Below are positions 2,151 through 25,410 of a stretch of DNA of 64,000 nucleotides, one piece after another. The translations under genes and the position numbers were made by a program. The DNA is taken from assembly GCF_013368755.1 (NCBI RefSeq), contig NC_049566.1, positions 186,001-250,000 on the forward strand, given 5' to 3'. Every line of letters starts with the position of its first letter. Position 1 is the first letter of the stretch. The notes below the pieces were generated by a model. It was not told the DNA's origin. It saw only the letters and a program-made list of their open reading frames with translations, and searched no databases. The DNA comes from Talaromyces rugulosus. Taxonomy: Eukaryota > Ascomycota > Eurotiomycetes > Eurotiales > Trichocomaceae.

Positions 2151-5100
2151 ATGACTGTCACCGACAAACTCAACGGAAACAGTCAGAATGGCACGACACA
2201 TGTCAGCAATGGCAACACAAATGGCCAACAGAACGGCCTTGCTAACTCTCAGCCAATAATGTCCCTTGACGCTGGCCTTGAGCCAATTGCTATTTGTGGA
2301 ATTGGCCTTCGCTTGCCTGGTGCAATTCGTACTGGGGATGACTTTTGGGATGTTCTATACCATGGCAAAGATCTTCGAGGCCCAATACCTGCGGATCGTT
2401 TTAATATCAGTGCTTTTGATGACTTGTTGGGGAAAAAGGGAGCCATCAACACAAGACACGGATACTTTCTTGACGAAGACCTAGGACTTATTGATGCTTC
2501 ATTCTTCAATATGAGCAAAGCAGAGCTGGAAAAGACTGATCCGCAACAGAGAAAACTTCTTGAAGTTGCACGTGAATGCCTTGAAAATGCTGGAGAAGTG
2601 AATTGGCGGGGAAAGAGTGTCGGTGTTTACGTCGGCACATTTGGTGACGACTGGTTACAAAGTACGACAAAAGAGAGCCAAGTCACAGGCAGTTACAATT
2701 TCAGTGGAGACCTTATGCTCGCGAATAGAGTTTCCTACGAATTCGATTTTCAGGGCCCAAGGTAAAGCCATACAACTTACCACTTATATGAGCGTGTAAG
2801 AGAGCTAATTCTATGTGATATTTTAGTTTGGTAGTCAAAACAGGCTGCAGTGCAAGTCTAGTTGCACTCCACGAAGCTTGCCGGGCCCTTCAGAGACAAG
2901 ACTGTACCGCAGCTCTTGTATGTGGCACGTCTCTTCTCATGGGGCCTCACATTTTCACAGTCATGACAAACGAGGGTGTTCTCTCCCCTGAGGGTTCATC
3001 CAAAACGTTTGACGCAAAGGCAGACGGATTTGCCCGAGCTGATGGCATCAATGCCGTTTTTCTCAAACGCCTTCCAGATGCGCTTCGAGATGGTAACCCA
3101 ATTCGCGCAATTGTTCGGAATTCTGGCAATAATAGTGACGGCAAGTCACAAGGACTGTTGTCGCCTAGATCGTCTACACAAGAAGCTTTAATACGGCATG
3201 TATACTCTCAAGCGAAATTGGATCCTAGTGAGACTGGTTTCATTGAATGCCATGGTACTGGCACAGCAACGGGCGATCCAATTGAAACCAGTGCGGTTGG
3301 AAATGTATTTGGAGAGAAAGGCATCTATATCGGATCGGTATGTTCTAACCTGATATATAAACCAAGAATGGCTACGAATGAATGTCTACTAACACTTGGT
3401 TCCATATTAGGTCAAACCCAATACAGGTCACTCTGAAGGTGCAAGTGGCCTCACTAGTCTGATCAAGGCAGTGCTTGCGTTGGAGCACAAGATAATTCCC
3501 CCAAATATTAAGTTCTCAGTTCCAAATCCCAAGAGTAAGTCAAATGAGCCATCTATTTTATGATCGAAGCCTTGTATCAGCTCGCTAACAAAATCTCTAG
3601 TTGCCTTTGAAAAGAATAAGCTCGTTGTGCCAGTAAAGCCAACACCTTGGCCAAGCAATCGCACAGAGAGAATATCAATCAACTCATTTGGAATTGGAGG
3701 AAGTAATGCGCATGTCATCGTTGATAGTATAGAACAATTCCTCACGGATAATCCTACACTTACTCACCGGTGGTCCCTGACGTTCGACAAACCTACTTGG
3801 ACATTACCACGACTGCTCCTCTTCTCGGCTAACAATGCAGAATCCACCAAGGGCTTTGCACGACAAAGCATCAAATATGCTACACAACGACCTGAGTCTC
3901 TAGTGGACCTAGCGTACAGTCTATCATCAAGACGCGAGAAACTGCCACACCGATCCTATGCCCTTGTTTCTGCCAACGGTGTCATTGCAGAGTCCGCTCC
4001 TGTTGTCAAAACGACGTCTCGCCAAAGACCCCAAATTTGGGTATTTAGTGGCCAAGGAGCACAGTGGGCACAAATGGGCAGAGAACTTCTTGCCAATCAC
4101 CCCATCTTTTCTCGAACCATTCATGATCTGGATTTCGCTTTGCAGTCTTTGAAACTACGTCCGAAATGGACTTTAAGAGGTACGTAACACCGTTTACCAT
4201 TCCTTTTTTCTTGTCTCACATCGATATAGATGAACTTTCAAAACCCAAAGACACAAGTCAAGTGTATCGGGCCGAGTTATCACAACCCCTGACTACGGCG
4301 GTGCAGCTGGGTTTGGTAAATGTTCTGAAGCAGCTAGGCGTTACAGCCGATGCAGTAATTGGTCATTCAAGTGGTGAAATTGCGGCTGCGTACGCGGCAG
4401 ATATATTGTCTCTGAGTGATGCGATAATCGTATCATACCTCCGCGGTTTTGTGACCAATTTTCAGACTAATAAGGGTGGTATGGCGGCGGTTGGACTCAG
4501 CGCAAACGCAGTTAAGGAATACCTGCTTGAAGGCACCGTTATTGCGGCAGAGAACAGCGATAAAGCGACCACTATCTCAGGAGACGAGACCGCCCTGGAT
4601 CAAGTTATAGAGAATATCAAAGCCAAGCACCCAGATACGCTTGCTCGAAGGCTTCGGGTCGATATGGCGTATCATTCACCCCGCATGGCAATAGTTGGCG
4701 ACAGTTATCTGGAGATGATGAGAAACACACTGGGTGCGTCGAGAACATGGTCACAACCAAGTACATCAAAGACCGCAATGTTCTCCACCGTCACTAGTCA
4801 ACGCATCGCTTTGACGATTGACCTAAAGTACTGGGTGACCAATTTAGTTTCCCCCGTAAGGTTTAGTCCTGGATTTTCGACAATGCTTACTGCTCTGGCT
4901 GGCCAACCAGTGATCATTGAAGTCGGACCTCACTCACAACTAGCCGGACCAATTCGCGAGATTTGTACAGCAGAAGGCGTACAAAGTAGCTATATACCTA
5001 CCATGATACGCGAGGCAGACTGTGTTGAGTCTCTCGCTTCTGCTGCTGGCCAACTTTTCCAACAAGGCGTGGAGTTTGACACAAGTGCCGACTCTACAAT

Positions 5101-8100
5101 ATTTCCACCAGGAAAAGTCTTGACCAATTTGCCTCTATACCAATGGGACCATTCGGCCAAGTACTGGTATGAGAACAGAGTCTCACATGATTGGCGTTTC
5201 CGCAAATATGGACACCATGCTCTGCTCGGTGAGATTATCCCAGAAAGCAGCACGATTGAACCGAGTTGGCGCTGTATCCTCGACCTGGAAGATGAACCGT
5301 GGTTGAGAGATCATATGATTGCAACCGACATTGTTTTTCCATTTGCAGGCTACGTCAGCATGGCGGGCGAGGCGATACGACAAATCTCCGGAACTGATAT
5401 TGCTGGCTATAAAGTCAAGCATGTTGTGGTGCATACCGCTTTGGTATTGAATGAAAGCAAACCAGCCGAGGTTATAACAACACTTCGAAAACGCAAACTA
5501 ACTGATGCGTCCGATTCGAAGTACTACGAATTTACGATTTCGTCTCACTCCGGTTCTACATGGACTAAGCATTGTGAAGGCAATGTGGTTGCATTGACAG
5601 AAAAAAAGTCGGTTGCGGATAACGTGAAAACGTTTCCGCGTAAAGTTATGGTGTCCAGATGGTACGACATCGTGTCCAGAGTTGGTTTGAGATATGGCCC
5701 AAATTTCCAGGGCATCAAGTTCCTCGAAGCATCTCCAGTAAGCATGCATGCCATCGCAGGAATTGCCGAGACGACCAACGGCCCATTCCTTTTTCATCCT
5801 ACCGCAATGGACTCAGCCTTTCAGCTAGTGATTGCTGCGGGAGCCAAAGCGTCATCCCGAAATTTTACACAATTGGTTGTACCGACCTTGATTGAAGAGA
5901 TCGAGATATATGCCTCGTCTGGTCTCATGACTGCTGAAGCTCAAGTTTCTCCAGACGGCAAAGAAACTGAATTGACATGCACCTCTGGCCAATCTGTGTG
6001 TCTTCGTATGAAAGGCGCAAGATTGACAGCCTTAGAGGGCGATCAAGAACCAGGTTTCGACAGGCACAAGGCAGCACGACTAGAGTTTTTCCCTAACCTT
6101 GACTTTGTGGACCATTCAACACTAGTTGACGCACCGTTTGTTCGAAGAGAGACTAGGGTGAATATAGAAGAGACAGTACTCCTGTCAATCTTGGACTCGG
6201 CTGAACGTGTCAAAGACCTGGAGCCTAGTCAGCCACATTATCAAATCTATCGAGAATGGCTGTTCAGGGAACAAAAGCGAGCCTCCAATAAGACATATCG
6301 ACTCTTCACAGATCGTGCGCATTTCTTCTCAACGCTCACCTGCGAACAACGTCAAGATGAGCTTAATAAGAGACTGGAGCTACTCTCAGATGACCCCGTC
6401 TTCAAACATCTTGCTCGCGGAATTCACAGAGTAAATCAAAATTGTGAGAATCTGTTCACGGGAAAATTGGACGCCTTGAATATGCTTCTGGAAGATAACG
6501 TCCTGGCGGAGATTTACAACTCTGTATCTTCCGATTTCTCGAGGTTTGTCAAGCTCTTGAGCATCAACAAGCCCACACTGCGCATCCTTGAAGTAGGAGC
6601 CGGAACAGGCGGTGCAACAGAGTTGATCCTTCGTGATCTCGTCGACATCTCCAACAACCCTCCACACAGCGTCTACACGTTTACCGACATTTCTGGCGGA
6701 TTTTTCGCGCAAGCTGCTGAAAGATTTAAGTATACTCCGAATATGGAGTTTAGATTATTCGACATTAGTCAGAGCCCATTCGAGCAAGGCTTCGAGGCTA
6801 ATAGCTACGACCTCATTCTAGCTAACAATGTCGTCCACGCGACAGAAAACCTCCAAGCTACCTTGCGCAATTTGAGGCCCCTTCTCCGAGAGGGTGGTCA
6901 ATTACTTCTTTCAGAAGTATGTGCTACCGGTGCCAATGCGCCTGGGTTCGTCTTTGGCCAGTTTTCGGGCTGGTGGATGGGCGAGGCTGACGATCGCAAA
7001 TGGGAGCCATATGTTCATGTATCCCGGTGGGATCGCGAGCTCAAAGCCGCTGGGTTCTCAGGAGCTGATACTGCAGTGTTTGACGAAGATGAGCCATATC
7101 AGTACTGTGCAGCTATAATTTCTCATGCGGTATCTAAAGTCACGACTGAACATTCCCCAGGCGTGGGCGGTCTTGAGGCTATTGCAGTTGTTTGTGATAG
7201 TCCAGATCATGGTCCAAGTGCAGATTTGATTGCTGATATACGATCACGAGGGCATGATGTTGAAGTAGTTAAATTCGGAACCGCGCCCCCCCCTGCAAAC
7301 CGGCCTGTTCTAGTGACTTTGGATCTAGAAGGCTACTTCTTCCAAGACATTACAGCACCTCGTCTCCTCGCCTGGCAAGGTCTTTGGCATCACCACCAAG
7401 GGCAGAAGTTGCTTTGGGTAATGCCAAAAGTACAACTCGACTGTGACGATCCGAGACCAGCTCAAACTCTTGGTGCCATGCGTGTCGCTCGGGCCGAGTT
7501 ATCACTGCCCTTCCACACTCTGGAGATTGACTCATCAGAGCCGAACTTTACCGATCTAGTCCTCAAAGTGTTTGACAAAGTTGTCGGTCGTGATGACGTT
7601 GAAGCACTCTCTCCAGACAGAGAGTTTGTGGTGCAAAATGGTATCGTCAAGGTCGGCCGCGCCCAACCATTCTCGCTGAAAAAAGAGATTGGTTTTGTTG
7701 CCACCAGTGAATGTGATACCACGCGGCTTGAAATCAGCAAACCTGGTTTATTGGAGACTCTACACTGGGTCAGCACCAAAACTACTTCTTTAGCAGCAGA
7801 CGAAGTTGAGATTGAAGCAAGAGCGGTTGGATTGAATTTCAGAGTATGTTGATCCTCAAGAATCATTGTTACTTGTACCATAAAGTCTAACGGTGATTTG
7901 TTAGGATATTATGGTATCTATGGGTATCTTAACCTTTGGAGATGGGACGCCACAGCTTGGTATCGAGATGTCAGGCATTATCACCAGTGTTGGATCAGCG
8001 GTCCAAAATGTTAAACCGGGAGATCGTGTCGTTGCGTTGGCCTCTCAAGGTTGTTTTTCAACGAAATGCATCATGAAAGCGCCACTCGTCGTCCAAATTC

Positions 8101-10119
8101 CAGACAACCTCGGTTTCGAAGAAGCTGCTACAATGCCCGCTGTTTTCTCTACCGTCATCCAAGCTCTTACTCGAGTGGCGCACTTGGAGAAAGGCAAAAG
8201 TGTACTCATCCATTCGGCGTGTGGAGGTATTGGCCATGCGGCCATCCAGCTTTGCAAAAACGCCGATGTCGAGGTATGTTTATAAAGACAATTGCCGATT
8301 TAGATTATCATTGCTGATTAACAACCATCATGGCAGATTTATGTTACAGTGGGTAGCAATACCAAGGCCGAGTATGCCGAAAACACCCTTGGTATCTCTA
8401 AAGATCACATCTTCAATTCACGTGATGACTCTTTCGTGGCTGATATAATGAGAGCAACAAATGGTAAAGGGGTGGACATTGTGCTCAATTCTCTTTCAGG
8501 ACCTCTTCTCCACGCTTCTTGGGACTGTGTGGCTGAATTTGGTCAGCTCGTGGAACTGGGTAAGCGAGACCTTGTCGAGTTCGGTTCCCTTGCGTTGGAG
8601 CCTTTCCTGCTCAACCGATCTTATTGTTGTGTGGATCTGGCGCATATGCTTGAGCGTCGCCCTGAAAAAGTCGGTCAATTGCTTCAAGACTCTATCGACC
8701 TATTCCGCGAGGGAAAGATTCAGTCTATCGCAAGCCGCACCGACTTTACCGCAAACCAAATCACTGAAGCTTTCCGTCACCTTCAGAAGGGGAACCATAT
8801 TGGTAAAGCTGTTGTCACGCTACCTCAGGACTCTTCTGACTTAGTTTCTTCGCCTAAACGGGCAGAAGTAAGCTTTGATTCATCAGCCACTTACTTGCTT
8901 ACTGGCGGGCTGGGCGGAGTAGGTAGGGCAGTAGCGGCATGGATGGCGGAACGTGGCGCGCGCAATTTGATATTCTTGTCTCGCTCAGCTGGTAGAGGTG
9001 GTGATGACTTGTCGTTCTTTGCCGAACTAGAGGCATTGGGCTGTACTGCCATCCCGGTACAAGGCCAGGTGCAGTTGTTGGAAGACGTTGAACGAGCCAT
9101 AGCCGCAGCTCCGAGTCCCATTCATGGCATCTTGCACCTTGCCATGGTTCTCGAGGTAAGTGACTGTGATTGGAGTATATCCAGTTTCAACTGCTAACAA
9201 TTTTCATGTATAGGATGGAGCCGCCGTTGATTTGACTTTTGAGCAGTGGACTGCAGCCGTGGCACCAAAAGTAGATGGTGCTTGGAACCTTCATAATTCT
9301 TTTATCCAACGACAGCAAAACTTGGATTTTTTCCTCCTGTCGAGTTCAATTGTTACTAGTGCTCACCATCCAGGTCAAAGTAATTATGCCGCCGCCAACA
9401 CGTCACTAGAAGCATTTGCTCAATATCGTCGGCGTCAAGGTCTCCCGGCAGCTGTGCTGAGCTTGTGTCCTATCGACGATATCGGATTCGTGGCAGAGAA
9501 TCCTGTCATCCGTCGCAAGCTTAAATCACAAGGCTTGAACTTCCTACCCGAAAAAGAGGTGCTTGACTATTTTGAGTTTGCTGTGTTACACCAGCAAGAC
9601 GAAGTGCAGAGCAGCTCACCTAAAGACCAACTGTCTTCATGGGCGAACGACAGTCACACAATCGTCGGTTTGCATAGTGAAATGCCTCTGGATGATCCTA
9701 ACTGTCATACAATATGGCGGCGGAACCGCGAAATGGGTTTCTATCACAATGTAAGCACAACATCGAACAATAACATTTCCAAATCCTCTAGCGGCCTCAA
9801 AGCCTTTATTGAGCAGGCGACATCGAGCGGTGATCCAGCAAAGTTCTTGGATAATGACGCAGCCGTTGATTATTTGGCGACTGAGATTGGGTTGCGCATC
9901 CTTCAATTGATGATGCGCGATGCAGATGAAGTGGACATTTCAGTGAGTGTCCATGCTGTTGGCATGGACTCATTGATGGCAATTGAGCTTCGGCGCTGGT
10001 GGAAGCAAAACTTTGCTGTCGATGTGACTGTGTTGGAGATTATGGGAGCAGGAACTCTTCGAGGACTTGGGCATGTTGCGAGCCAGGGACTAAAAAAAAA
10101 GATTTTCAAAGAAGGCTAA
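2151..10119 (+). CDS. Highly reducing polyketide synthase (KS-AT-DH-cMT-ER-KR-ACP), 2510 aa
   Basis: Eight exons: 2151-2761, 2827-3337, 3411-3534, 3601-4179, 4230-7843, 7905-8273, 8337-9155 and 9214-10119 (7533 nt, in frame). KS: active-site C211 in TGCSAS, H346 in ECHGTGT, H381 in [18 protein letters not shown] near 563 and GHSSG with S655. DH: H970 in WLRDHMI and D1136 in [11 protein letters not shown]-methyltransferase: [10 protein letters not shown] near 1396. ER: GLNFRD at 1810-1814 and the NADPH loop [11 protein letters not shown] from 1916. [12 protein letters not shown] from 2125 and Y2267 in SNYAAAN. ACP: S2462 in [10 protein letters not shown]. All catalytic residues are present, so a fully reduced, C-methylated chain can be made in principle. 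There is no thioesterase, reductase or condensation domain, so release must need a separate enzyme. The product cannot be named from sequence. The gene converges on the MFS gene. Confidence 0.96.
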
Positions 10120-10431
10120 ACCATCGTAAATCATAAAAAGAAATGGATGGTATTTAATTCGTTTTTATTCTATACCGAATATCACCTAGAATTCTTTTGC
10201 GTATTATAGTTCTATTTGTAGAATTAAACGATAATTTAAAGACTGTTCAGATGACGAACAAGAATCAAATTTTAGATGGCTTATTTTTGCTCTACCTATA
10301 TTAAAGCAGTGTCCCCGATTCAATAAAGCAAGATAACACAAGACTAAAGTTGGCACAGCCATTTACCCAAGCCAAAAGATAAGGATTGAGAAGTAACGAA
10401 CTCGGGGATGAGATACTAAACCCGACCGTCC
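10120..10431. other. Convergent 3' intergenic region, HR-PKS / MFS
   Basis: AT-rich 312-bp spacer between two convergent genes. It must hold both 3' untranslated ends. Nothing else was recognised. Confidence 0.5.
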
Positions 10432-12189
10432 TTATTGGGTAGTGCCAGTTTCAGCGTCAGTCTGATCTTCGGCCTTTTGACTGTCCTTGACGCTTTTCCA
10501 CTCCATGAAGATAAGTCCCAGCGCACTCAGACACGTAGTAATGAGCGCCACCCTAAATGTTCCTACAATGGCCTCATTGTATACATGTTTGAGCTGTTCC
10601 AATACTGCGGGATCCGTGATTCCCAACTTTGATGGTGCAGCCGTCGCTCCGGCATCAACAATTGTCTGAGGATCGACACCAAGATTGTGTATACCTCTAA
10701 GACCCTCAATAAGCTTGGTGGCAAAGACATTTTGAGCAACGCTAATGAAAAGGCTGCCGCCAAACATCTGAGCAAAAATAATGATTGATGTCCCAATGGG
10801 CACGTCGGTGAGAGGAAGAACGGCCTGTGCCTGGATAATCGTTTGTTGCATGCCGATTCCAATACCGACGCCGAAAACAATCTGATAGCCGACCCATTTG
10901 CCAGTCGTGATGTCAACCGAGTAAAGGGTTAGAAGCCCAGCACCGATAGAGCCAATGACAGTCAGCCCATACATGAATGGAGCAGGGTAGCCCTGCTTTG
11001 TCACCACTCCTCCTGCAATCGTCGCTCCTAAAGTGAACGAGATGAGTAGCGGCAACGTATTCACGCCAGCTGTAGTAGCAGAAGTACCCCGAACGACCTG
11101 GAACCAGATGGGGATATAGTAAATATTGACAAAGAATGCCGCGCCAACGCACATAGAAAAGTATGCCGAACTCGCAATACTGCGCTGTTTTATGATACGT
11201 CCTGGTATGGTAGCATCTTCGCCCACAAAATACTGGACGACGGCAAAGGCAATCAAGAGGACACCAAAAAGGGTTAGTAGAGCAATGATGCGACCGTTGC
11301 TCCATGGATATGTGGTTCCTCCCCAGAACAAGGCGAGAAGAATACAGATGACGCTAGGCAAGAATAGAAGCGTGCCAATAGGGTCAAAACTCTTGATCTT
11401 CCGAAGCAAACCGGGATTTTCCTGCGTAAGATCGGCTTCCTTTTCCGGCAACCTAAGGAACAGCAAAATCGAAGCAGCAGTTATACCGCCAAAGGGCAGG
11501 TTGATATAAAAGCACCATCTCCATGAAACATGATCGGTAAAGGCACCTCCGAGTAACGGCCCAACAATGCTGGCAATGCCATATACCGCGCCAAAAAGGC
11601 CCGTGTAAATGGGACGCTTGTCGAGTGGTGTTGTGAATGCCAGGATAATCAACGAGCCAGAGAAGATTCCCGCTCCGCCAATACCTGCAATAGCACGGGC
11701 GACAATCAGGGCAACCGAGTTAGGTGCCACGGCGCATATGAGAGATCCGAGTTCGAAAAAGAATAGACAAAGTAGGAAGACCCATTTCACGCTGAAAGTT
11801 TTGTAGAGGCGGCCCAAGAAGAGGGTGAAGCCGCAAAATGTAAGCAAGTATGCAGAGCCGTACCAGCCAACATCTGACAAGGCTTGGAATTGGTCTGTAA
11901 TTTTGGGAATCGCTGTAGCGATGATGGTGTTGTCCAGTGAGACGCAGAGAACAGCAAGTTGGAGACCACCCACTATAGCCAAAAGCCTGAGTCCTGACGG
12001 GTATGTGGTGTTGTCGGCGGCTTCGCTGGTGGCCAGATCGACGGGCAATGATGCGTCGAGTGCATCCTTTTCGTTGTTCAATTCCTCTGCCGTCGTCAAA
12101 TTGTTTGCGTGGTTGAATCTGTCATGAACTAGGTCATTGTCACCACTCAAGGTGGCAGCTTTGCTGTCCGTGCTGTCGGGGGTGCTCAT
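10432..12189 (-). CDS. MFS multidrug/toxin efflux transporter, DHA2 (14-TM) type, 585 aa
   Basis: Single exon. The ATG at 12189 (MSTPDSTDS) is chosen; the open frame extends upstream only through a TTG. A hydrophilic acidic N-terminus of about 70 residues precedes many hydrophobic helices. Family motifs include [13 protein letters not shown] in TM1, [20 protein letters not shown] in the first cytoplasmic loop, the antiporter motif C region [16 protein letters not shown], and FYINLPFGG. These are standard for the 14-helix drug:H+ antiporters that sit in fungal secondary-metabolite clusters and export the product at the plasma membrane. It lies tail-to-tail with the PKS, which fits export of, or self-protection from, the polyketide; the substrate is inferred. 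No breaks were seen. Confidence 0.93.
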
Positions 12190-12878
12190 GGTTGCAAAAA
12201 AGTGTGATACAAGCAAGATACGCAGTCAAACTGAGAGAATGGTTGAGAAATCTAAATAGATCTCACCTGCTTGAGAAAGTCGGCGCCTTTACCCTAACCC
12301 TTCAGTGAGGTGAGGCCGTCAACGCTTTAAAAGGGGACTAACATGCGCAACTCTTGGTGACAGTATCAATGCATACATAGTTCATCGGTAAGGGGCCCTG
12401 CGGACGAGTTAGTGCGTGCTGCCCAGCGGACGATTTGGTGCGGACAACTACGTAGTACGAATTCTAAATAAGTGCGGGTGGGGACGATCTCCGAGTGGAT
12501 CCGACGGCCGGCCCCACCTGTCATATGCAAGTCGCTCGACGCGGCGACGCTATTTGGACGTCAACCCCTGCGTGGCTGAACACACTTGTAATAATGGAGG
12601 GGCTTGTAAATTGGTTATGCTCCGGTATGTATAACATTGAAGATTATAGTGGCAGCCTCGCTAGACTAACCACTTTAGTTGAATTCTGTAAATTTTAAGG
12701 CTATCTTGGACAATGCATCGGTCAGTTCCGGCCATGAAACGCAGGCGACGGAGCTGAACGAGCCTATAGATGGCAATTTTAAAATGAGTGTAATAGTGGA
12801 GATGGCGGACAAAACCTGCTACAGGACAGCGAAGGAAACAGCTTCAATCACACAAGTACAGTTTTCCATACGACTTCT
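12190..12878. promoter_or_regulatory. Upstream region of the MFS gene
   Basis: 689 bp between the MFS start and the 3' end of the 2OG oxygenase gene. No gene was seen. A GC-rich patch at 12479-12550 carries several CGG/CCG triplets flanked by GTGGGG and CCCCAC, which could be bound by a zinc-cluster factor; that is speculative. Confidence 0.3.
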
Positions 12879-14040
12879 CTATACAGATACCTCAGCCTTG
12901 TTCCACTTGACGTTATCTTTATAGTACCCCTTGATGACATTATCACCCCAAACCTTGCAAGAATCGGCAGGCCGAGCCGCCTCCTCCGCAGATTGCGCAG
13001 GAATTTTGGAGCTGACCAAAGGCGCCATAGGGACCCCCCAGTTGGGTCTCCCAGTAAATAACACCGATACTCTGTCGAGATTTGCCTGGTCTCCATGCGC
13101 TGTTACAACGCGATGAAGTCCTGACTTGAGGGCTCCGTTGGTAAAGATCGGCATGGTGTCCCCGAGATTCACAATCATGTGTCCAGCCTCTGGGCGAACC
13201 CAGAGCCATGAATCTTCAGTGGGCGTATCCGAGTTAAGATAGACAGCATCGTCTCTGGGAATTTGTAAACCGCTTACCCAAGTAAAGAGCATGGAAATGC
13301 TGACAACATCACGGTGTGCAAAGACACGAGGACGTTCGCGCATACCATTGCCATCGCCTGTAGGGGGGTATCTCAACACTCGCAAGAACGAATGGGTTGG
13401 TGCTTCAAGTTGGTGGGTGTCGGTAAAAGTACCGGGTTTGAGTTCAAGTTGTTGCTCGAGAGCAGCGAGAATAACAAGCTCAACCTTATGTGCTTCTGTT
13501 TGAATATTCTTGAAGAGGTCTTCGTGAGGCTTGAGCCAGCTGGGAAGCTCCCATCCAGGTGTCGGTTTTGCAAAAAGCTCATCACGAGGAATCTAGACTA
13601 GGTGTAAGCAGCTATTTCGAAAATAACCAAGCGGCAACAGCCAAAATTGGAATAACTACGTTGATTGATTCAACAAATTTGGCAACTCCCTGGCCATCAC
13701 GAGCGGATGATGTGTAGCCACGGTCCAGAACACCTCGCTCTTCGCGTTGAAGAAAGAGTTTCTTGTCTTCTTCAGGCAACGTCGCCATGATGTGCTGACC
13801 GAGGTTGCGCAGCTTACAGGCACTTTCCCAAAGGTTTCGACCAAGCGGGTGATCCATCAGGTTCAGAAGAAAGAATCCCGTGCGAGCACAAATATCAACA
13901 ACGGTCTTTGTCTCGGCTTCATCTTTTCCCATAAGCTTCGAGATGGAGACCCTTGGCAATTCGTAGGTCGGAAGATGATCCGGTAAAGGGATGGGTTCAA
14001 AATTGGCTGGGTTGAATTGCTCAAGTGTGACTGTAGCCAT
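12879..14040 (-). CDS. 2-oxoglutarate/Fe(II)-dependent oxygenase (isopenicillin N synthase-like), 364 aa
   Basis: Two exons, 14040-13660 and 13592-12879, separated by a 67-bp intron (GTAGTT...TCTAG). The start MATVTLEQ has ATAATGG context; an upstream in-frame ATG at 14121 is less likely. The N-terminal DIOX_N-like part has the usual hydrophobic ARTGFFLLNL segment. The jelly-roll core keeps the iron ligands H220 and D222 (AHRDVVSI) and H287 (GLHRVV), and the 2OG-binding R301-x-S303 (DRVSVLF). Length matches the family, so it should be active. In fungal clusters such enzymes hydroxylate, desaturate, epoxidise or cyclise the scaffold; the substrate here is presumed to be the HR-PKS product. Notably, no P450 gene was seen nearby. 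It is co-oriented with the MFS gene. Confidence 0.92.
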
Positions 14041-15305
14041 TATGACTATTGAATTAATAAATCTTAAGCAGCTTACACAATGAGAGATGCTGATATTTTT
14101 GTCTGTGCTTCCCTTGCTCATCTGGGAGGGAGTAAGCAGGGATATAAATCGTTCGCGACCGATTACACAGTAGTGTTAATATTTTGAATCGGCGCGTAGT
14201 AAGCCCGAACCCCTCATTTTATCTCGTTCATTGACTTGGAATCATATGCGAAATATTGAATGGCCATCGAGCGGAGAGCTTGATGGTGAACTGTCGCTTT
14301 CAATTCGGGGGGGGCTTGTAAGGATACAGAGTAGGATGCATCACATTGACACGTCATTCTCTACCGAAAACGGTCGAGTTCTGCGCTTAGATGAAAGGCG
14401 AGCTGAAAAGCGAGCTGAAAGTCATTAACGTATTTCACCACCCATCCGACACACACCTCCGAGCTGATCAGCGGAATTCGCATACAAATTAGCAAAAATA
14501 CCAATATCATAACTTAGTAACCATAATGTAATTATAATTTATAGCTTAAATCTTTAATATTATATAAGATCTTTTTATATTAACCCTTAATTGTATTAGA
14601 ATTTATGAAAAGAATTTATAATATTTTTATTCATTTCTTTATAATTCATAAATTAATTTAGATCATATTAACTGATACACAAAATTATATAATAATATAT
14701 CGAATAAATATTATAGCAAACTTACAATTCGTTTTAATACTACATTTTCATTTTTCTTAATTTGTATGCGAATTACCCTGATCGGCTCGGTGGTGTGATC
14801 GGGTGGGTGGTTACAACGCCAAGAAACAAGTGGAGCACTATCTACACTACATTCGCATGAGAGTTGTGAGCCTCACGGTCGATTCGTAATTAAGGGACGG
14901 ATTTGGAAAGTAACTACGAATTATGTATTTAGGGACCGGACTCGGGCCAGACTTGGACCAGACTTGGACCGGACCAGACTCTTGCGAGATTTCGGGCGAA
15001 AATCAACTGCAAGTCCGCAGCCTTACATATAACAACTTGCAGTCCAACGTTTACACGATATTCGGTACAAAACTTGGTATGGTGGTCTAATGCAGCTCGT
15101 TTCCTTAGCGATGCGACGCTGACAGTACAGGGGGTTCGATTAGATGTGATCGAGCTTAAGGTTATCAGGGTCGCCGAAAGAAAAGTTCAATATAATGAAA
15201 TGAGGCACAATCAGAACGGCGAGGACACCAAGTCTTCAAGTTCTTTGCCTCAATTGGGAAGTGTTGATCTCCAAGTATCTCACTCTCAGAGACGTACTCT
15301 TCATC
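14041..15305. other. Intergenic region with an AT-rich inverted-repeat element
   Basis: Divergent region between the 2OG oxygenase and the SDR. Apart from the inverted-repeat element listed separately it contains short direct repeats: two GCGAGCTGAAA copies near 14399-14421 and a GACTTGGACC pair around 14950-14971. No gene was found. Confidence 0.45.
14434..14815. mobile_element. MITE-like AT-rich element with ~60-bp terminal inverted repeats
   Basis: The left end (about 14435-14497) and the reverse complement of the right end (about 14752-14815) align over about 60 bases with few mismatches. Shared blocks include ACCACCCA or ACCACCCC-like ends, GAGC(T/C)GATCAG and AATTCGCATACAAATTA. Between them lies roughly 260 bp of very AT-rich sequence without an open frame. 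Short length, no transposase and long terminal inverted repeats fit a non-autonomous DNA transposon or its RIP-degraded remnant. Target-site duplications are not clear, so exact ends are approximate. Confidence 0.7.
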
Positions 15306-16126
15306 ATGAGCACACTTATCACACTCATCACAGGTAATAGAGAAGAACCAATCCTGCATCTATCTGACGACAGACTTTACTGTGACGATTCTGACGAGAA
15401 TCAGGTGGCAATCAAGGGATTGGATTCGAAACTGCCAAAAATCTCGTTTTCTATAGCTCATCCTACCATGTTATTCTCGGTAGCCGCGACTTGCATCGCG
15501 GCGAAGCTGCCATGAAGATGTTGTCTGCGCTTCCAGACATCAAGGGGACTGTGTCGGTCGTTCAGCTTGATGTGACGGATGATGCCAGTGTTGATGCTGC
15601 TGCAGCTTCCATCAAGGATTCGTACGGCCGCCTTGATGTTCTGGTCAACAGTTCTGGCATATTTGAACCTGGCAAGCCACGAATTGTTGCTCGCAAAATT
15701 TTTGAAACGAATGTCGTTGGGTACATAAATGTCACCGAAGCTTTCTTACCGCTTTTGCATGAAGCACCCTCTCCGAGATTGGTATTCTTATCGAGCAGCC
15801 TAGGATCGCTTACACACGCCTCCAATCCTGAAAGTAGGTACTATACACCATTGGGGACCGAATATCGTGCGGCCACTGCGGCGCGCAACATGATTATGAA
15901 CCAGTATTGGGTGCGTCTTCAAAAGGAAGGCAATGGACAGTTTAAAGTTCATGGAGCCGATCCTGGCTTGGTGGTTACTAATTTGGCTGAAACTCCGGAA
16001 CGGTTGAGGGCTCGAGGAGCAGCTGAGCCAGATGTCGGAGGAGAGCGTGTTGCTTCCATCATTAAAGGGGAGCGTGATGCCGACGTTGGTCTTGTTTGCG
16101 GGGTGTACGGGGTATCACCTTGGTAG
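15306..16126 (+). CDS. Short-chain dehydrogenase/reductase-like protein with altered catalytic site, 249 aa
   Basis: Two exons: a 28-nt first exon, 15306-15333, then 15405-16126. Only this join completes the Rossmann loop TGGNQGIG (G10, G14, G16). Downstream are LDVTDD, LVNSSG (91-94, normally NNAG), the FLSSS strand and the position of the catalytic tyrosine, Y163. The residue four after Y163, which is Lys in active SDRs (YxxxK), is T167. Both NNAG and YxxxK are thus degraded although the frame is open to the end. The protein may bind NAD(P)H without normal catalysis or be an early pseudogene. It lies in the PKS cluster next to the 2OG oxygenase. An SDR fold is certain; activity is doubtful. 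Confidence 0.82.
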
Positions 16127-16435: not shown

Positions 16436-17303
16436 TTACTCCTTTTTATCCCACTTTGAGAGTTGGTCATATCTGCAACGAATTTAGCTAGAGTTGCATT
16501 GATCCATGTAATAGTGATGGAAGCCTTGACAAATATCAAGGCGCTGGGAGGGGCCGCGTACTTACCGATTCTTGGTAGCGATTGGTGTTCTATCAGGAAA
16601 ATATCGCTCGACAATTTCTGTCCACTTCCTTCCATGGGCTTTTACAGCATTTTTCAACATGAAGTCCTGATACGCATCGCTGTTTAGGTACTGCAGTGAC
16701 CCTGAAAGCGTTGTGCAATGTGTTTTCCTACCTCGTATAAAGACCATCTGCCGCGATTGATAGCCGGCTTCTCAATTTCATGCCACCGTCTAGCACATTC
16801 TAATATCGCAAGTGAATTAGCAAGCATAATTGAGCAATCATGAAAGATTACATGGAAACGGCAAGCCTGGTGCGATTAAACAACTTACGGTCGGGTTGTC
16901 TTGTTTGGACATGCTGTGCTACGCTCGCCCACCTGCAATTAGTGGCCTATGTTAGAATGTACGGCACAAAGTGTAACACCGTATACAAAAAACTTACTTT
17001 GTATCTAAAGTACGTACTGCCTCATGGAGTAGCTCAATTTCTCTCGCATCCCAAGATCCCTTTTTTATGTTGGGCGCCAAACAGTATGCCCATCTTTTGC
17101 GGCAGTCTTTGTTTGATCTGCCCACTAGCTTTGTGGCGATTTCGTGCCAGTTTATCGGCTGCGTTGTAGAAGCTGAGAAGGTGAGACTAAGCCGTTCCAG
17201 AATACACGAGCAACGCTACCGATATATACCTACAGGATTGCGCAGCCACAACCTCTCGAAGAACCTCATCTTCCTGTTTGGTCCAGATTTTAACGGCTTT
17301 CAT
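16436..17303 (-). CDS. Three-repeat Myb/SANT DNA-binding protein, 164 aa, six exons
   Basis: Minus-strand exons 17303-17234, 17172-16998, 16932-16889, 16799-16732, 16666-16566 and 16472-16436 join in frame (495 nt). Repeat 1 starts at KIWTKQEDEVL and continues through INWHEIATKL and RSNKDCRKRW. Repeat 2 is GSWDAREIELLHEAV through KWASVAQHV and DQCARRWHE. Repeat 3 is GRWSLYEDFML through RKWTEIVERY and TPIATKNRYDQL. The regularly spaced tryptophans and the recognition-helix ends (RKRW, ARRW, KNRY) are diagnostic of c-Myb-type R1R2R3 domains. The acceptor at 16667 was preferred over one at 16691 because it restores the W-x18-W spacing. The protein is almost only DNA-binding domain. It may regulate the cluster or be unrelated; position alone cannot decide. 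Confidence 0.82.
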
Positions 17304-18811: not shown

Positions 18812-19044
18812 TAACGCATATTAAGAAATACCGGGTTTACTCCGCACCGCTAACGCCTGGAAATATTTCCTACTCACTCAAGTAGACGCGGAAATAGTAG
18901 AACTACTAGTAGGGGGGAAACTCAAAAACCAACCATGGAGAAGGGCATCTCAGCGAAAGATCCTGGGCTTGGGCTCATAAAGCATACTAATCGAATGTTG
19001 TCCAAGTGGTAACACGAAGATGTTGCCTGTCACATCATGCTTGC

Positions 19045-19500
19045 GAACCTGGCCCGCTCCCTGCGAAATACCCGCGAGAGAACACTGTATTCGATCTACA
19101 TATAATGGATATTTCAGATAACGACTATATTCCGTGGCCGTTTCCGCTGCATTGGATGAGTCCGAACCGACTGTTCTAACTCACCGGATTGTGCGGCTGG
19201 AGCAAGAAAATTCGACTCCTTCGCGCTGGGCAGCTTGATTCTGCCAGGCAGATTGAACAGCTGGAAGAAGCCAGTTCACGCTTAAGCCTTGAGAATGAGA
19301 AGCTACGGAGACTAATCGAGAGTCAAGTTAGCCCTTTTGGAAGCTCAACGGCCAGAGATTCCTTCAACTGGCCTCAGCTTTTCGAGTTTCCCCATCACTC
19401 ACGGTCCCTGATGACCGAAAATGCTTTTATCGACGCGGTGCCGGAAAATCCCACCCCCCAAGGGGGGGTTGTACTTCCACCACCGGAAACTGTGGGGTAA
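19045..19500 (+). pseudogene. Relic of a fungal bZIP transcription factor
   Basis: Fragments in more than one frame resemble the fungal bZIP class with a basic region beginning 'NLAR(I)R.NQR.SRA'. A LANLARSLRNTRER piece is encoded at 19047-19088. A zipper-like stretch then follows: AGQLDSARQIEQLEEASSRL, then LSLENEKLRRLIES (19225-19326), matching the typical A-x2-x-EN-x2-LR-x-LL end of that zipper. The frame closes at 19500. The basic and zipper parts are in different frames with stops between them, and no splice sites reconcile them. It is probably a dead regulator; the assignment rests on pattern similarity only. Confidence 0.42.
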
Positions 19501-19661
19501 GTTGGGAGGGTAAAACTTCTCTGTATAGAGGACGACAAGACCATCCCTTCACCCGCAAATAAAAGGCAAGATAAATATAGCAGTCCGTCCTTGTAAGATC
19601 CGCAATGACTCCTACTACCCATTAACAATCTATTTCATATATCTATCAACGTCCCTTTAAC

Positions 19662-21494
19662 ATGGAAGCAAACATGAATGGCGCAAATTCTAGTGGGCTT
19701 AGCAATTGCCCTAAGACCCCGGCTCCTTTTCCCACAAATTGGATACCTGTGCTTGAAAAGCTAGCATTCAGCCCTCACAAGATCGACTTCGTTTGCATTG
19801 GAGCCGGTTTCTCGGGTTTGACCCTTGCATACAGGTGGAAACATGAAGGAGCCAATGAATTCATCAACCGGAGAATATCTGAAAAGAACCACGACGTGGG
19901 CGGCACTTGGCTTGAAAATCGCTACCCAGGGAATGCGTGTGATGTGAGTTCAACCCTAACGATATCAAAGGACTAACCCGTCGCAAAATGTTGTGTCTAT
20001 AGGTCCCCGCTCATATCTACACATTTACCTTCGAACCAAATCCAGACTGGACATCGTTCTACGCATCTGGACGTGAAATTTGGCAATACATGAAGCGGAC
20101 GACGGAAAAATATCAGCTCGATGAGCGTGTGCGGCTCAATTCCAGAGTGACCTCCGCCATCTGGGATGACGCTGCTGCTAGATGGAAAATACGAGTAGAC
20201 CAGGGCGGCAAAATCATCGAAACTGAAGCCCATATTCTTATCAATGGTTCCGGCATTCTGAATAAATGGCACTGGCCCGACATCAAGGGGTTGAGCTCGT
20301 TCAGAGGCAAACTTGTGCTCAGTGCCGACTGGGACGAAAGCTTGGACTGGGAGGACAAAAGAGTCGCACTGATTGGTGGCGGCTCCTCTGCTATCCAGAT
20401 CTTGCCGTAAATGCAGCCTGAGGCATCCAAAATCGCCACTTACATTCGTTCTCCAACATGGATCACGTTTAATTTTGCCGCGCAGCTTACTTCGGACGGG
20501 GAGAACTTTGAGTATCCCGAGAATGATAAACGATTGTGGAGGGAAAATCTGGGGGAGCATTCGAAACTCCGCCGCCATTTTGAGCATGAATTCAACAAGT
20601 TCTTTCCGTCATATTTGGCGGAAGGTGCCCAACAAGCCGAGATGAACAAGCTTTTCAGACAAACCATGGAGCAGCGCCTTAACCATAACGCTGACCTCTG
20701 TGCAAAGCTCATTCCGGATTTCGGGATTGGATGCCGACGGATCTGCCCAGGTGATGGGTACCTCGAAGCATTGCAAGAGAAGAATGTACGGATTGAATTT
20801 TGCTCGGTGGAGGAGATCACCCCAACAGGAATCCGAAGCTGTCAAGGCCATGAAGAATTCGACATCGTAGTCTGTGCCACCGGGTTTGATGTCAGCTTTG
20901 TCCCGCCATGGGAGATGATTGGGAAAAATGGGGTCTCCCTGAGGGAGCAATGGAAAGATGCACCCTATGCGTATTTCGGTATCTGTACCCCTAACATGCC
21001 GAATTATTTCATTTACAACGGTCCTAATTGCCCAATTGCGCATGGAAGTTTGATTCTGGTCATCGAGTGGTTCACCGATTAAATACTCAAACGGTGCCAG
21101 AAAATTGCTACGTCAGATATCGGGTCAGTGTCTGAGATCCCTGGGTTGGATTTTGTTAGAAGAAGAACGAGAAGGTCTAATTGATCGCCTTTGTAGGTTT
21201 GTTGTTGTCGACGCCCAAGCAACAGATAACTATAATGTCTATTCCATAGAGTTCCTCAAGAGAACTGTATGGACGGGTCGTTGCCGGTCCTGGTTCAAGA
21301 ATTATCAGATCGATGGAAGAATAACTGCCATGTACTCCGGCAGCGGTCTCCACTACAAGGAAATCATCGAGAGCTTCCGAGCAGAGGATTTTGAGATCGA
21401 GTATAACAGCCCCAACAGATTTCGTTTCATGGGCAACGGATTAACCCTTCGAGAAGAAAGTGGTGGGGATTTAAGTTTCTACCTCAATAAATAG
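19662..21494 (+). pseudogene. Baeyer-Villiger-type flavin monooxygenase, disrupted by two nonsense codons
   Basis: Exon 1 is 19662-19943; exon 2 starts at 20003 after a normal GTGAGT...TATAG intron. FAD loop: CIGAGFSGL (G47, G49, G52), then VGGTWLENRYPGNACDVP, typical of class B monooxygenases. NADPH loop: LIGGGSSAIQ. The reading frame is broken by TAA at 20408-20410 (codon 230), right after the NADPH loop, and by TAA at 21080-21082. Homologous sequence continues in frame after each stop, up to TVWTGRCRSWFKN and FMGNGLTLRE at the C-terminus; a further short intron near 21140-21190 is needed. The Baeyer-Villiger fingerprint FxGxxxHxxxW reads FRGKLVLSADW, with Leu at the His position. It probably once oxidised the cluster product. 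Confidence 0.85.
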
Positions 21495-22729
21495 GCCCAA
21501 GAGACAGTCGAATGCATGATATTTTGCTCATCAAATGTGGCTGCATTGATGAGTTGGCTCAAACTGGTTTGTATACGGTGGGTTCTCGTGGATATATTAT
21601 GGGAAATGCTAGACTTACGCGGTACTTGTTTTCAGAAACAAAAATAATCAAACACCTCTAATTGAGGACCTTCCAATTTGGAGGGTTCAATCTCAAAGTT
21701 GGCGTAATCTTGACTCTGCTTACTGCAGCCCAAGTCTATATTTCCGAAGATACTTTCGTGGGGGTAAGATTTCCGGCTGATTTTCCATGCCTCGTTTGCT
21801 ACATTCTCATTGGATAATTTCCTCTGCTGCAGCAGCGTCAAACATGATGTATGTTCAAGTGGTGGGCTTCACCCAAAGTGCCTATTGGAATACTATGGAC
21901 ACGTACATCGCCAACTCTTTGATCCAGTTGTAACTGTCGGACAAAGGGCTATTTGGCATGAGTATCTTCAACGTGCAAAATATCTACCCAACATTGTGAG
22001 TACCGTGACTTATGATAAGGCAGTCAAGTTTTCAGAGATTCATAGAGATTCTTTTTTCTTGTAAGACGTTGGGGAGTGTTCCTTCTAGTCCCTCGTTTGG
22101 CATACCGATATACCCTCTACTCTCAACAAATCTCGGAGTCTTCGAAGTCTCTGTTTTCAGTTGTAAAGTCCCGCAATACTTATTGGAAGAATGCCACACG
22201 TTTTACCCGTGTATTTATCTCTTGTTGAAACCGTGGCTATTCTTCCTCGATTCGCGCTAGGTGAATGAGAGCCAGCCGTAGAAGTCCATTTCGCCCCATG
22301 GAAACAACCACTTCTAGTTACGACTGAATTAAAGATGAAATGCGGTTATTAAAAAAAAGTTGAGAAAAAGGAACCCGGGAATTGTGGGTTACGCAGCGTG
22401 TAATACTGATGGTAACATTGAATCATTTAGGAGGATTCGTTGAATGGAATCCGTCTAGGAAAAGATAAATGCTGTTGCCCATGCTTTCCGATCTTTCTAT
22501 TGACCACGAGCGTTACAAATGATAAAGCAATTTCATCTTGTCGGCAAAATATGAGAAAGAAGAAACTTTCAGTCACCTATTGACTGGCATTCTGCGATAT
22601 TTTCATACATTTCATAGATACACCAGGCTGGCGCTAATCCTCCTACTTTAAATTTGAGGTCTAGATCACTATGCACACACAATATCTGTCTTCCTATAAT
22701 GAGAAGAACCGAGACATGACGACGGCCTT
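21495..22729. other. Gene-poor stretch
   Basis: About 1.2 kb with only short open frames in conflicting phases. A piece near 21851-21931 (YVQVVGFTQSAYWNTMDTYI) has protein-like composition, but no gene model or family could be made. Confidence 0.3.
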
Positions 22730-22731
22730 GT

Positions 22732-23757
22732 GTGTGTCACTATTACCATAAACCATATACTTTCCCGTATGTCAACCTCACACTCCCTTATGAAATGTGG
22801 TGCATGGGAGCTCAAATTTGTGATAGACCAGAGTCTGACCATATTTTTGTCCCAAATGTGGTGCCAATTTTTGCAGAAGCGACGTCTTATTACGGCATAC
22901 GAGATCGTGCACTGGGTCCAGGTGCACACCTAGAGCGGTTAAATCTAACGCCAAAGCGCCTCGCAGGGAAAACGTTAGAAAACTTCCACAAGCTGCTAAA
23001 GTACCTCCTACTGCTACTGGGGCAGGATATAACAAAGGTAGTCGAGCTGGTCAAAGAGTAAGATTGAACAGTTCGTGAATTAGATTGGTATTTTCTGCTA
23101 ATACACCGACGGTAGGCTGGTCAAGGGACTTTACGGGCAGAATTTACCCTTTCCAATGGCGACGAGCCGGTTCTCGGTCATCTGGCCCAAGGCTTGTCTT
23201 TAGACGATACTCTGTCTTCTGATTACCCTTATGTGACTGACCCCGTTGCCGAACGAGGGAGCAGAATGCAGGTTCAAATTTTACCCTTCAGTTGCATCCG
23301 TAGCGAACCTCGAGCACCAACACCAACTATGGGTATGAGTCATGGGACTATTGACCGCATTTTGCCTGAGAGTTCCACCAGAAAGACGGACCCCGCTAAT
23401 CTGCTTTCAAGTAAAGCTAACAGTTGTATAAATCTCGATCATGAAAAATCAACATTTGAGAACATTCAGCTCAGCCCCGCGTCCGGAGTAGATAGAATCT
23501 CGCCAATGGAGTTATTCGATCCTCCTTCTCTAATTACTGCTCATTATGCGCATGCTCACGATGCTCCCAGCATGTCTAAGACTTCATATGATAGAAAATT
23601 TTCCAGGGCAGATATTAGCAGCCTGAAAACGAAGTTGAATGGAAGTTGTGCCGCCGACTTACTGTTATCTTCGGATTTCCCCAGTCACGCTCGAATACAA
23701 CCCCTTGTGAATACTTTGTTAAGTGATTTAACACTTATATATATATATCTTCCCTGA
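22732..23757 (+). CDS. Uncharacterised open frames, possibly one two-exon gene
   Basis: A 109-codon frame (22732-23061) is followed by a possible intron with a TGCTAAT branch-like site ending TAG at 23115, then a long frame (23116-23757) that is Ser/Pro/Thr-rich and looks disordered. The first frame contains aromatic and Cys residues but no known motif, and it lacks an ATG at its start (GTG at 22732). Alternative phases give a basic, low-complexity reading across 22940-23065. I do not recognise any family, and it could be two relics. Treat as a candidate only. Confidence 0.22.
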
Positions 23758-23780
23758 AGCAATTTTCAGTGTTGCTCAAA

Positions 23781-24106
23781 ATGACTGTAAGTAAACTTGT
23801 TACTACATTACTTACCCCATCTAGATCTCTACCTAACCCCATCTTCATCCTCATATCCGCTGTGGTCCTTGTCATACTGGCCATAGGAAGCATCTTCCTG
23901 CCAGATTTGAATTCTCATGCAGAGAATATGAAGCATTTTGTAGGTTTATTGACGAGGTAATAAATTCAACTGATGTCATTATTTGATGCATTTGTCCACT
24001 GCCTGTTAACTATTTGCTAATGACATGACGAGCTAGTACCACCTCAATAGGATCTTTAGTCCTAGTAGTAAAATGGAGGTTGCACCGTGGTTTTGCGATG
24101 CCATAA
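23781..24106 (+). CDS. Small putative membrane protein, 81 aa, two exons
   Basis: An ATG at 23781 starts a frame that closes at 23960, but splicing GTAATA...GCTAG (23957-24036, with a TTGCTAATGAC branch-like site) joins it in phase to 24037-24106. The product would have one clear membrane segment (IFILISAVVLVILAIGSIFL) and a second weaker one (IGSLVLVV) followed by a basic tail (KWRLHRGFAMP). Small two-helix proteins with this layout are hard to assign, and no family was recognised. It follows directly after the uncharacterised frames upstream. Confidence 0.3.
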
Positions 24107-24630
24107 TATTCTGTGCTGGATTTAGCGCTTGTTTAAATGATCCAGCATGCATTTTATGCCTTCAGAAGCAGCTACACTCATTGGCTCTCCTTGGTTAGTC
24201 CCACGAACAGATCGGAGATTCAACCTTTGAATTTGCGTTCAGCTAATTCACGTTCAGGCTCAGACCGCCAAGTTTCATCGGTGATGAAAAGATGCTTTCC
24301 CGGAACTTTCAGCATTCTTTCCAGGTCCCCATTAGGTCGGGGATCATGCACGGCGCGAATTATTCGAAACAGAATGGACAGCAAAACCGGGTAGTCGACA
24401 GTTCCAACTGCCAGATAAACTGTTGCCTGTCTTGAGCTTTAGTATAAATACTACACGTGCTATTTTGCAGATCAGCAAGTTTGCATTATAGGAAGAGAAA
24501 TTTGCTGTACGATGTTTGAGGAATTTCCATAGTTCTATTCATGAGTCATTAGACGATAAGAGCTATAGAGCAGCCGATGAAGCATTCCGAATCGTACTTG
24601 AAAGTATAAATAGATACAGATATGTATATA

Positions 24631-25410
24631 TTATCTACCACTTATTCTATTCTCAAGTGCCCTCTTGGTAACATGAATGGCAGGTGCGAGAATGTCAAAT
24701 AGATGGGGGACACCAGGATAAAGATGAAATTCCACACCCACATCGGCTGCTGCCAATACAGTAGCGTATTGGATGCTTTCATTTCGAAAGATGTCCAGAT
24801 CACCAACCTCAACCTCAATGTACGCAGATTGAAGACCATCAACGGTTTCCGACCGTGCAGGTGCTGCATATTGAGAAACAGGATCATGGTTGTTGCCGTT
24901 TCCGAGCAGAGTGGTCCAACTGGTGATATTGTCAGCCACTTTCCAGGGCGCAAGAGGCTCAAGAGCCAGATTAGGTGTGGTATTTCGATCGTCGAGCATC
25001 GGGTAGATCAGTATCTGTTTTGCCAATCGGTGAAATAGCCCTCGGTCCCTTGCGAGTAATGAGGCGCAGGCAGCAAGACAACCCCCAGCACTGTCGCCCA
25101 TTATTGCGATACGCTCAATGTCGACGGAGAATTGGACCTGATGTTCATAGACCCAGGTAAGGGCCGCGTAGCAATCCTCGCGAGACATGATGGCTGTAGT
25201 ACTCTTTTTCGAGAAGCGGTGCACAGAAATGTAGAACCCATCGTACGATTTGACGCGATATTTCGTATGCTCAACATCTTCTGAACGGGGATCTTATCCA
25301 ATAATGGTTGGAAGAAGCTAGGTATTAGCTCACGCCGTTCTGCAATTTGCCGCAATGGAGGGAATCGCAGGGGCAGTATTCTGGAACTCAGGATCATATG
25401 CAAGAGGCAT
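24631..25410 (-). pseudogene. HSL-type alpha/beta hydrolase pseudogene lacking the HGGG loop
   Basis: It begins at an ATG at 25410 with MPLAYDPEFQNTAPAIPS, the usual start of fungal lipase/esterase-like hydrolases. The homologous reading then moves to a second frame (ERRELIPSFFQPLLD) and to a third (EHTKYRVKSYDGFYISVHRF), so two frameshifts are needed. Directly after that, sequence continues at SREDCYAALTWVYEH. The stretch of about 60-70 residues that normally sits between, holding the HGGG oxyanion hole and the YRLAPE motif, is absent from the DNA and not in an intron. Downstream, the nucleophile motif GDSAGG, the acid region (EVGDLDIFRNES) and the His (GVPHLFD) remain. Such hydrolases can release HR-PKS chains, so its loss matters for the cluster. 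Confidence 0.82.

What the first reader, a model, noticed from the sequence alone, without database searches (positions are those of the whole stretch)
2151..25410. HR-PKS cluster with an intact core but decayed tailoring genes
The 2510-aa synthase, the exporter and the 2OG oxygenase keep every catalytic residue, whereas the monooxygenase, the hydrolase and a bZIP gene are broken and one SDR has lost its catalytic Lys. The strain may make a shunt or truncated product compared with relatives that carry the full cluster.
Basis: partly seen in the sequence, partly recalled or inferred. Interest (0 to 1): 0.75.

Follow-up and report, generated by a model that had tools for sequence, protein, structure and literature searches.

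The report
Intact polyketide cassette with odd reductase
A mould carries an intact small-molecule gene set resembling those of distantly related fungi, and an enzyme that looked broken instead belongs to a family sharing the same changed active site, while the truly broken genes beside it may be unrelated neighbours.

Summary
The window is Talaromyces rugulosus W13939 (synthase = TRUGW13939_10406, 100% identical). HR-PKS, MFS exporter and 2OG oxygenase are intact. The FAD monooxygenase has two in-frame stops; the hydrolase has frame breaks and lacks its 5' catalytic segment. A bZIP gene is not confirmed.

The SDR is not decayed. The query and 15 of its 120 best relatives lack the YxxxK Lys, and all 16 share an Arg at Tyr+7 that 0 of 105 Lys-bearing rows have. 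They group on one side of a branch (91/83; weaker, 52/26, with the motif columns removed). PKS and SDR both lie closest to Xylaria and Pleurostoma proteins, and a single Talaromyces SDR clade is rejected (p-AU 0.00045). No named row of the 120 best monooxygenase hits is xylariaceous.

Best reading: an intact PKS-MFS-2OG-SDR cassette of xylarialean type, probably acquired horizontally, beside pseudogenes not shown to belong to it; its SDR has a rearranged active site. The shunt-product idea is not supported. Synteny in Xylaria could not be checked.

The parts
2151..10119 (+). Highly reducing PKS, KS-AT-DH-MT-ER-KR-ACP, 2510 aa; exons 2151-2761, 2827-3337, 3411-3534, 3601-4179, 4230-7843, 7905-8273, 8337-9155, 9214-10119
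10432..12216 (-). MFS exporter, single open frame (at most 594 aa), MFS_1 and TRI12 matches
12879..14121 (-). 2OG-Fe(II) oxygenase, exons 14121-13660 and 13592-12879, 391 aa, metal and 2OG ligands present
15306..16126 (+). Lys-less SDR, exons 15306-15333 and 15405-16126, 249 aa; Tyr163 at 15863-15865, Thr167 at 15875-15877, Arg170 at 15884-15886
19662..21494 (+). FAD monooxygenase pseudogene with in-frame stops at 20408-20410 and 21080-21082; probably a neighbour, not part of the cassette
24631..25410 (-). Alpha/beta hydrolase (Abhydrolase_3) pseudogene: frame changes in the 5' part and first quarter of the domain missing; membership unknown
16562..17215 (-). Myb-like DNA-binding pieces in more than one frame (introns not excluded); membership unknown
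22839..23078 (+). Weak C2H2 zinc-finger piece (below Pfam's cut-off); membership unknown

Best explanation
The functional unit is a compact, intact four-gene cassette at 2151-16126. The HR-PKS builds a methylated, reduced chain, the SDR and the 2OG oxygenase modify it and the MFS pump exports it (order and roles inferred from families). T. rugulosus most likely received PKS and SDR from, or by the same horizontal route as, Xylariales and other Sordariomycetes (inferred from two trees). The SDR works without the YxxxK Lys: its group keeps Asn, Ser and Tyr, has Thr, Asn or once Gly at Tyr+4, and an invariant Arg at Tyr+7. I infer that this Arg, on nearly the same helix face, takes over the cofactor-ribose contact and Tyr activation that Lys gives elsewhere. 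The broken monooxygenase and probably the other pieces at 16.5-25.4 kb are neighbouring wreckage rather than lost steps of this pathway.
For: Shown: intact PKS, MFS and 2OG frames and catalytic residues. PKS conserved-column departures ordinary: 9 of 429, other 37 rows 1-28. SDR: 16 of 121 rows Lys-less, one change on the tree; Arg at Tyr+7 in 16 of 16 versus 0 of 105, and these are the only basic residues lost or gained group-wide under the script's thresholds; Asn, Ser and Tyr kept 16 of 16; query departures ordinary, 4 of 70 within the group, the 12 others 0-8. PKS tree (38 of 120 listed rows): T. rugulosus sister to three Xylaria, support 1.0; four Penicillium and Aspergillus rows elsewhere. 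SDR nearest Xylariaceae and a metagenome protein; Talaromyces held together rejected, p-AU 0.00045. Monooxygenase: best named foreign hits Fusarium, about 63%; no named Xylariaceae in the 120 listed. In F. falciforme (locus tags 018078 and 018080), P. expansum and C. karsti, a related PKS and a Lys-bearing SDR are listed on contigs of equal length.
Against: Synteny in Xylaria, Astrocystis and Pleurostoma was not checked, and the listed contig lengths of their PKS and SDR differ. MFS and 2OG membership rests on adjacency and intactness alone; their ancestry was not searched. With the motif columns removed the Lys-less group still needs one change but support falls to 52/26, because one Lys-bearing row (P0172) sits beside it. 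Half the group (8 of 16) has Asn at Tyr+4, which reads like the YxxxN of complex SDRs. The query alone has NSSG where nearly all others have NNAG, which could be a start of decay. T. rugulosus has SDR paralogues, best 55%, so old paralogy with losses is possible instead of transfer. Expression unknown.
Confidence: 0.55

Rival explanations
1. One reading: one larger cluster up to 25.4 kb whose monooxygenase, hydrolase and regulator were inactivated in this strain, so that a shunt product is made.
For: The broken genes lie next to the cassette and are of kinds used as tailoring enzymes; the monooxygenase broke recently (4 departures at 103 conserved columns, 5 of 46 relatives have more). They could have joined the cluster after its arrival in Talaromyces.
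Against: No named Xylariaceae among the 120 best monooxygenase hits although Xylariaceae proteins are in the same database; SDR 'decay' refuted; Myb and C2H2 pieces of unknown relation lie between.
Confidence: 0.25
2. The Lys-less SDR is no longer an oxidoreductase but does a non-redox step (cyclisation, dehydration, epimerisation or binding), with Arg170 serving that new role.
For: Loss of the usual Lys, plus group-specific sites 99, 105, 109, 116 and 170 while the cofactor motif is kept.
Against: Asn, Ser, Tyr and the glycine motif are all kept; a bacterial SDR without Tyr and Lys, SimC7, still reduces a ketone (PMC5039031, abstract and passages).
Confidence: 0.3
3. Vertical descent: the cassette is ancient and was lost in other sequenced Eurotiales, so no transfer took place.
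For: The PKS family is spread over many classes with patchy presence.
Against: T. rugulosus nests next to Xylaria in both trees, and the other Talaromyces SDRs fall in a separate group; no other named Talaromyces among the 120 best PKS hits.
Confidence: 0.25
4. The breaks are sequencing or assembly errors.
For: Frame changes in the hydrolase are of a kind that long-read assemblies can contain (general knowledge); no reads were available.
Against: The monooxygenase breaks are stop codons, not length changes, and the hydrolase also lacks a whole segment; the 2510-aa synthase frame nearby is clean.
Confidence: 0.08

Closest known systems
Highly reducing fungal PKSs (rows named LovF-, FUM1-, mokB- and gloL-like; LovB solved, 7cpx)
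   Same: Domain order and catalytic residues
   Different: Own subgroup with Xylaria (61-64%); no characterised member seen in the 120 listed rows, names there being by homology
Classical SDRs (YxxxK), e.g. carbonyl reductases 7ypd and human CBR1, the best fold matches
   Same: Fold (model of relative P0124, pLDDT 91), glycine motif, Asn, Ser, Tyr
   Different: Lys absent, Arg at Tyr+7
Divergent SDRs (YxxMxxxK; motif from PMC3144213 section 14)
   Same: A basic residue at Tyr+7, the same spacing
   Different: Arg instead of Lys; no Met at Tyr+3 (A 9, S 4, G 3); overall a classical-type sequence
Complex SDRs (YxxxN; PMC3144213 section 14), as in the KR domain of this very PKS
   Same: 8 of 16 rows have Asn at Tyr+4
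   Different: The helix Asn before the active site is kept (16 of 16) and no basic residue was gained there, whereas the KR has its Lys there (Lys position recalled; residue seen)
SimC7 ketoreductase (PMC5039031; abstract and passages)
   Same: SDR of polyketide biosynthesis without the Ser-Tyr-Lys triad
   Different: SimC7 lacks Tyr too (Ser-Ile-His); here Tyr and Ser are kept
VEP1 / progesterone 5-beta-reductase family (PMC3144213; section 14 read)
   Same: Rearranged SDR active site with a conserved basic residue at a new position, in a laterally spread family
   Different: Extended-type relative; Lys moved to another loop and Tyr not conserved

Membership tests
Highly reducing iterative type I PKS | KS, AT, DH, ER, KR and ACP with catalytic residues | tested here: met
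Highly reducing iterative type I PKS | Makes a reduced polyketide | not testable with these tools
   No expression or metabolite data
Classical SDR | Rossmann fold with TGxxxGxG motif | tested here: met
   Pfam adh_short, model of relative P0124, Gly 13 of 13 rows with letters
Classical SDR | Asn-Ser-Tyr of the catalytic tetrad | tested here: met
   16 of 16 each
Classical SDR | Lys of YxxxK | tested here: not met
   T 7, N 8, G 1 of 16
Divergent SDR (YxxMxxxK) | Met at Tyr+3 and Lys at Tyr+7 | tested here: not met
   A/S/G at Tyr+3, Arg at Tyr+7
Complex SDR (YxxxN) | Asn at Tyr+4 with Lys on the preceding helix | tested here: not met
   Asn in 8 of 16; helix Asn kept and no basic residue gained there; the Lys half of this definition is recalled
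Horizontally acquired cluster | Gene trees in conflict with species relations, for more than one gene | tested here: met
   PKS and SDR; 38 and 43 rows chosen by me
Horizontally acquired cluster | Same gene order in the presumed donor group | not testable with these tools
   No fungal genome collection held; protein search gives no context
   Monooxygenase and hydrolase
   Monooxygenase: no named Xylariaceae in the 120 listed hits; hydrolase not tested

The most novel reading that the evidence does not exclude
A further SDR active-site layout, Y-x(3)-[TN]-A-A-R, in which the catalytic positive charge has moved one helix turn from Tyr+4 to Tyr+7, fixed in a patchily spread fungal family that travels with one group of HR-PKSs and has crossed from Sordariomycetes into Eurotiales.
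Probability: 0.4. Interest if true: 0.65.

Novelty: new variant of a known kind. Interest (0 to 1): 0.42.

Why it matters
It corrects a plausible but wrong sign of decay: a 'lost' catalytic Lys that a whole family lacks, together with an Arg that only this family has. Motif checks would discard such SDRs as dead. If the Arg does the work of Lys, this is a clean natural case of catalytic-residue migration that can be tested with one purified protein. It also points to an apparently unstudied HR-PKS group shared by Talaromyces and Xylaria whose product is unknown.

Tried and rejected
Duplication or RIP as the cause of decay: the DNA search found no second copy of 14200-25600 in the genome (that search skips common words), and the RIP composite index is negative in every named gene or gene piece tested; it is positive only in the stretch 17470-18960 and in 2 of 64 one-kb windows. 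Rejected.

bZIP gene: no Pfam support. Of the four Myb-region frames tested, 17187-17468 and 16684-16875 gave no match and 16562-16771 a match under the cut-off.

NCBIfam matches shown were all under their curated cut-offs. Structure prediction (P0124 of X. arbuscula first, 38 rows) confirms the SDR fold only; no coordinates could be measured, so the place of Arg170 is inferred.

Papers: nine searches for the strain, the locus tag, xylarialean HR-PKS transfer, Lys-less SDRs, PhqE and decayed clusters. Nothing in the listings shown named this cluster or a Y-x(3)-[TN]-A-A-R family. Opened: PMC8403587 (passages; it only names T. rugulosus in another context), PMC5039031 (abstract and passages), PMC3144213 (passages and section 14). 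The library is open-access only, so this is weak evidence of absence.

Rows dropped or chosen: the monooxygenase comparison used 46 of the 60 rows P0242-P0301 (14 under 480 aa left out). The within-group SDR count used 13 of 16 rows (short ones out). The PKS tree used 38 of the 120 listed and the second SDR tree 43 of 121, both chosen by me; the Talaromyces grouping was tested after the first tree had been seen. Contig-length matches were read by eye.

Full report
What is there. The window is C6:186001-250000 of a 35.76-Mb, six-contig genome. Its synthase is letter-identical to TRUGW13939_10406 of Talaromyces rugulosus, listed on a contig of 4978393 bases, the length of C6. From the left: HR-PKS (2151-10119), MFS exporter (10432-12216, -), 2OG oxygenase (14121-12879, -), a small inverted repeat (14452-14797), SDR (15306-16126), then Myb-like pieces, a zipper-like ORF, a FAD monooxygenase, a weak C2H2 piece and a hydrolase.

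Intact part. KS Cys and two His, AT Ser, DH His and Asp, the MT and ER glycine motifs, KR Lys, Ser and Tyr and ACP Ser are present. At 429 strongly conserved columns it departs 9 times; the other 37 rows range from 1 to 28. The 2OG protein has two exons and its metal and 2OG ligands. The exporter frame is open.

Broken part. The monooxygenase keeps its exons but has two in-frame stops. At 103 conserved columns it departs 4 times; 5 of 46 relatives depart more often and 2 equally, so the breaks look recent. Intact copies exist in many fungi. The hydrolase changes frame in its 5' part and lacks the first quarter of its domain. A bZIP gene is not supported.

The SDR. Among the 120 best relatives 105 have Lys and 15 have Asn (8), Thr (6) or Gly (1); with the query these make 16. 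The 15 include eight named organisms: Astrocystis, Xylaria bambusicola, X. arbuscula, Rhexocercosporidium, Mycena, Pleurostoma, Cytospora and Thozetella; the other seven are unnamed. They need a single change on the tree, with support 91/83 on all columns and still one change but weak support (52/26) when query residues 159-175 are removed, because one Lys-bearing row, P0172, sits beside them. All 16 have Arg at Tyr+7 and none of the 105 does; under the script's thresholds no other basic residue is lost or gained by the group. Sites 99, 105, 109 and 116, near the catalytic Asn112, are also group-specific. Asn, Ser and Tyr are kept in 16 of 16. The query is ordinary at conserved columns: 4 of 70 within the group, the 12 other rows compared having 0-8, and 3 of 69 over all rows; two of those three are its NSSG in place of NNAG, which is the one result that could hint at decay. 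On an ideal helix Tyr+4 and Tyr+7 lie at 40 and -20 degrees from Tyr, 6 and 10.5 angstrom along, so the Arg could reach the site that Lys serves elsewhere. This is inference; no coordinates were measured.

How it compares. PMC3144213 (section 14 read) lists three SDR motifs: YxxxK, YxxMxxxK (divergent) and YxxxN (complex). The present group fits none: the spacing of its Arg equals that of the divergent Lys, but there is no Met at Tyr+3; half of it has Asn at Tyr+4 but no new basic residue on the preceding helix. SimC7 (PMC5039031, abstract and passages) shows that a polyketide SDR can work without the canonical triad, though it lacks Tyr as well.

Ancestry. The best-scoring PKS relatives are X. 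arbuscula (64%), X. bambusicola (61%) and Pleurostoma (57%); X. multiplex has 61% over 85% of the length; no other named Talaromyces is among the 120 listed. In a tree of 38 of those rows T. rugulosus is sister to the three Xylaria with support 1.0; the four Penicillium and Aspergillus rows fall elsewhere. The SDR pairs with a metagenome protein and groups with Xylariaceae and others, while T. atroroseus, stipitatus, marneffei and proteolyticus carry Lys and lie in another group; holding the five Talaromyces rows together is rejected (p-AU 0.00045). T. rugulosus has other SDR paralogues, best 55%, so old paralogy with losses is not excluded. No named row of the 120 best monooxygenase hits is from Xylariaceae; the best foreign named one is Fusarium solani at 63%. 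X. arbuscula, X. bambusicola and Pleurostoma occur both among the Lys-less SDRs and among the closest PKSs, but the listed contig lengths differ between the two proteins, so linkage there is unproven. In F. falciforme (locus tags 018078 and 018080), P. expansum, C. karsti and two Hypoxylon records, a related PKS and a Lys-bearing SDR are listed on contigs of equal length, which suggests an old partnership of this kind of SDR with this kind of PKS; for the two Hypoxylon contigs, several megabases long, this says little.

Reading. The simplest account is an intact PKS-MFS-2OG-SDR cassette of xylarialean type in a partly broken neighbourhood that is not shown to belong to it. Shown: the intact core, the two broken genes, the Lys-less group and its Arg, the gene-tree positions. 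Inferred: the transfer and its direction, the membership of MFS and 2OG, the moved-charge mechanism, and that the broken genes are bystanders.

Noticed in passing
19662-21082: The public model TRUGW13939_10410 (P0241, 431 aa) leaves out the stretch around the first stop, as if it were an intron, with the second glycine-rich motif in it, and ends at the second stop: an annotation that hides a pseudogene.
   Followed up: partly
15306-16126: No T. rugulosus protein matching this SDR is among the 120 best hits (best 74%, unnamed source), so the gene seems to be missing from, or very differently modelled in, the public annotation.
   Followed up: no
14452-14797: Single-copy inverted repeat with 48-nt arms (88% complementary), G+C 26% over 14440-14810, MITE-like, between 2OG and SDR genes; no other copy found in the genome.
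   Followed up: partly
29668-32471 (-): Two long adjacent frames (272 and 665 aa) with a P-loop-like GxGKS stretch by eye but no Pfam match.
   Followed up: no
17470-18960: The only labelled stretch with a positive RIP index (TA/AT 1.21, composite 0.25); no gene recognised in it.
   Followed up: no
42561-43895 (-), 50742-53018 (+), 56510-58358 (+), 62631-63587 (-): Ordinary neighbours by Pfam: Zn2Cys6 regulators, a GH3 glycosidase and a glutaminase A domain.
   Followed up: no
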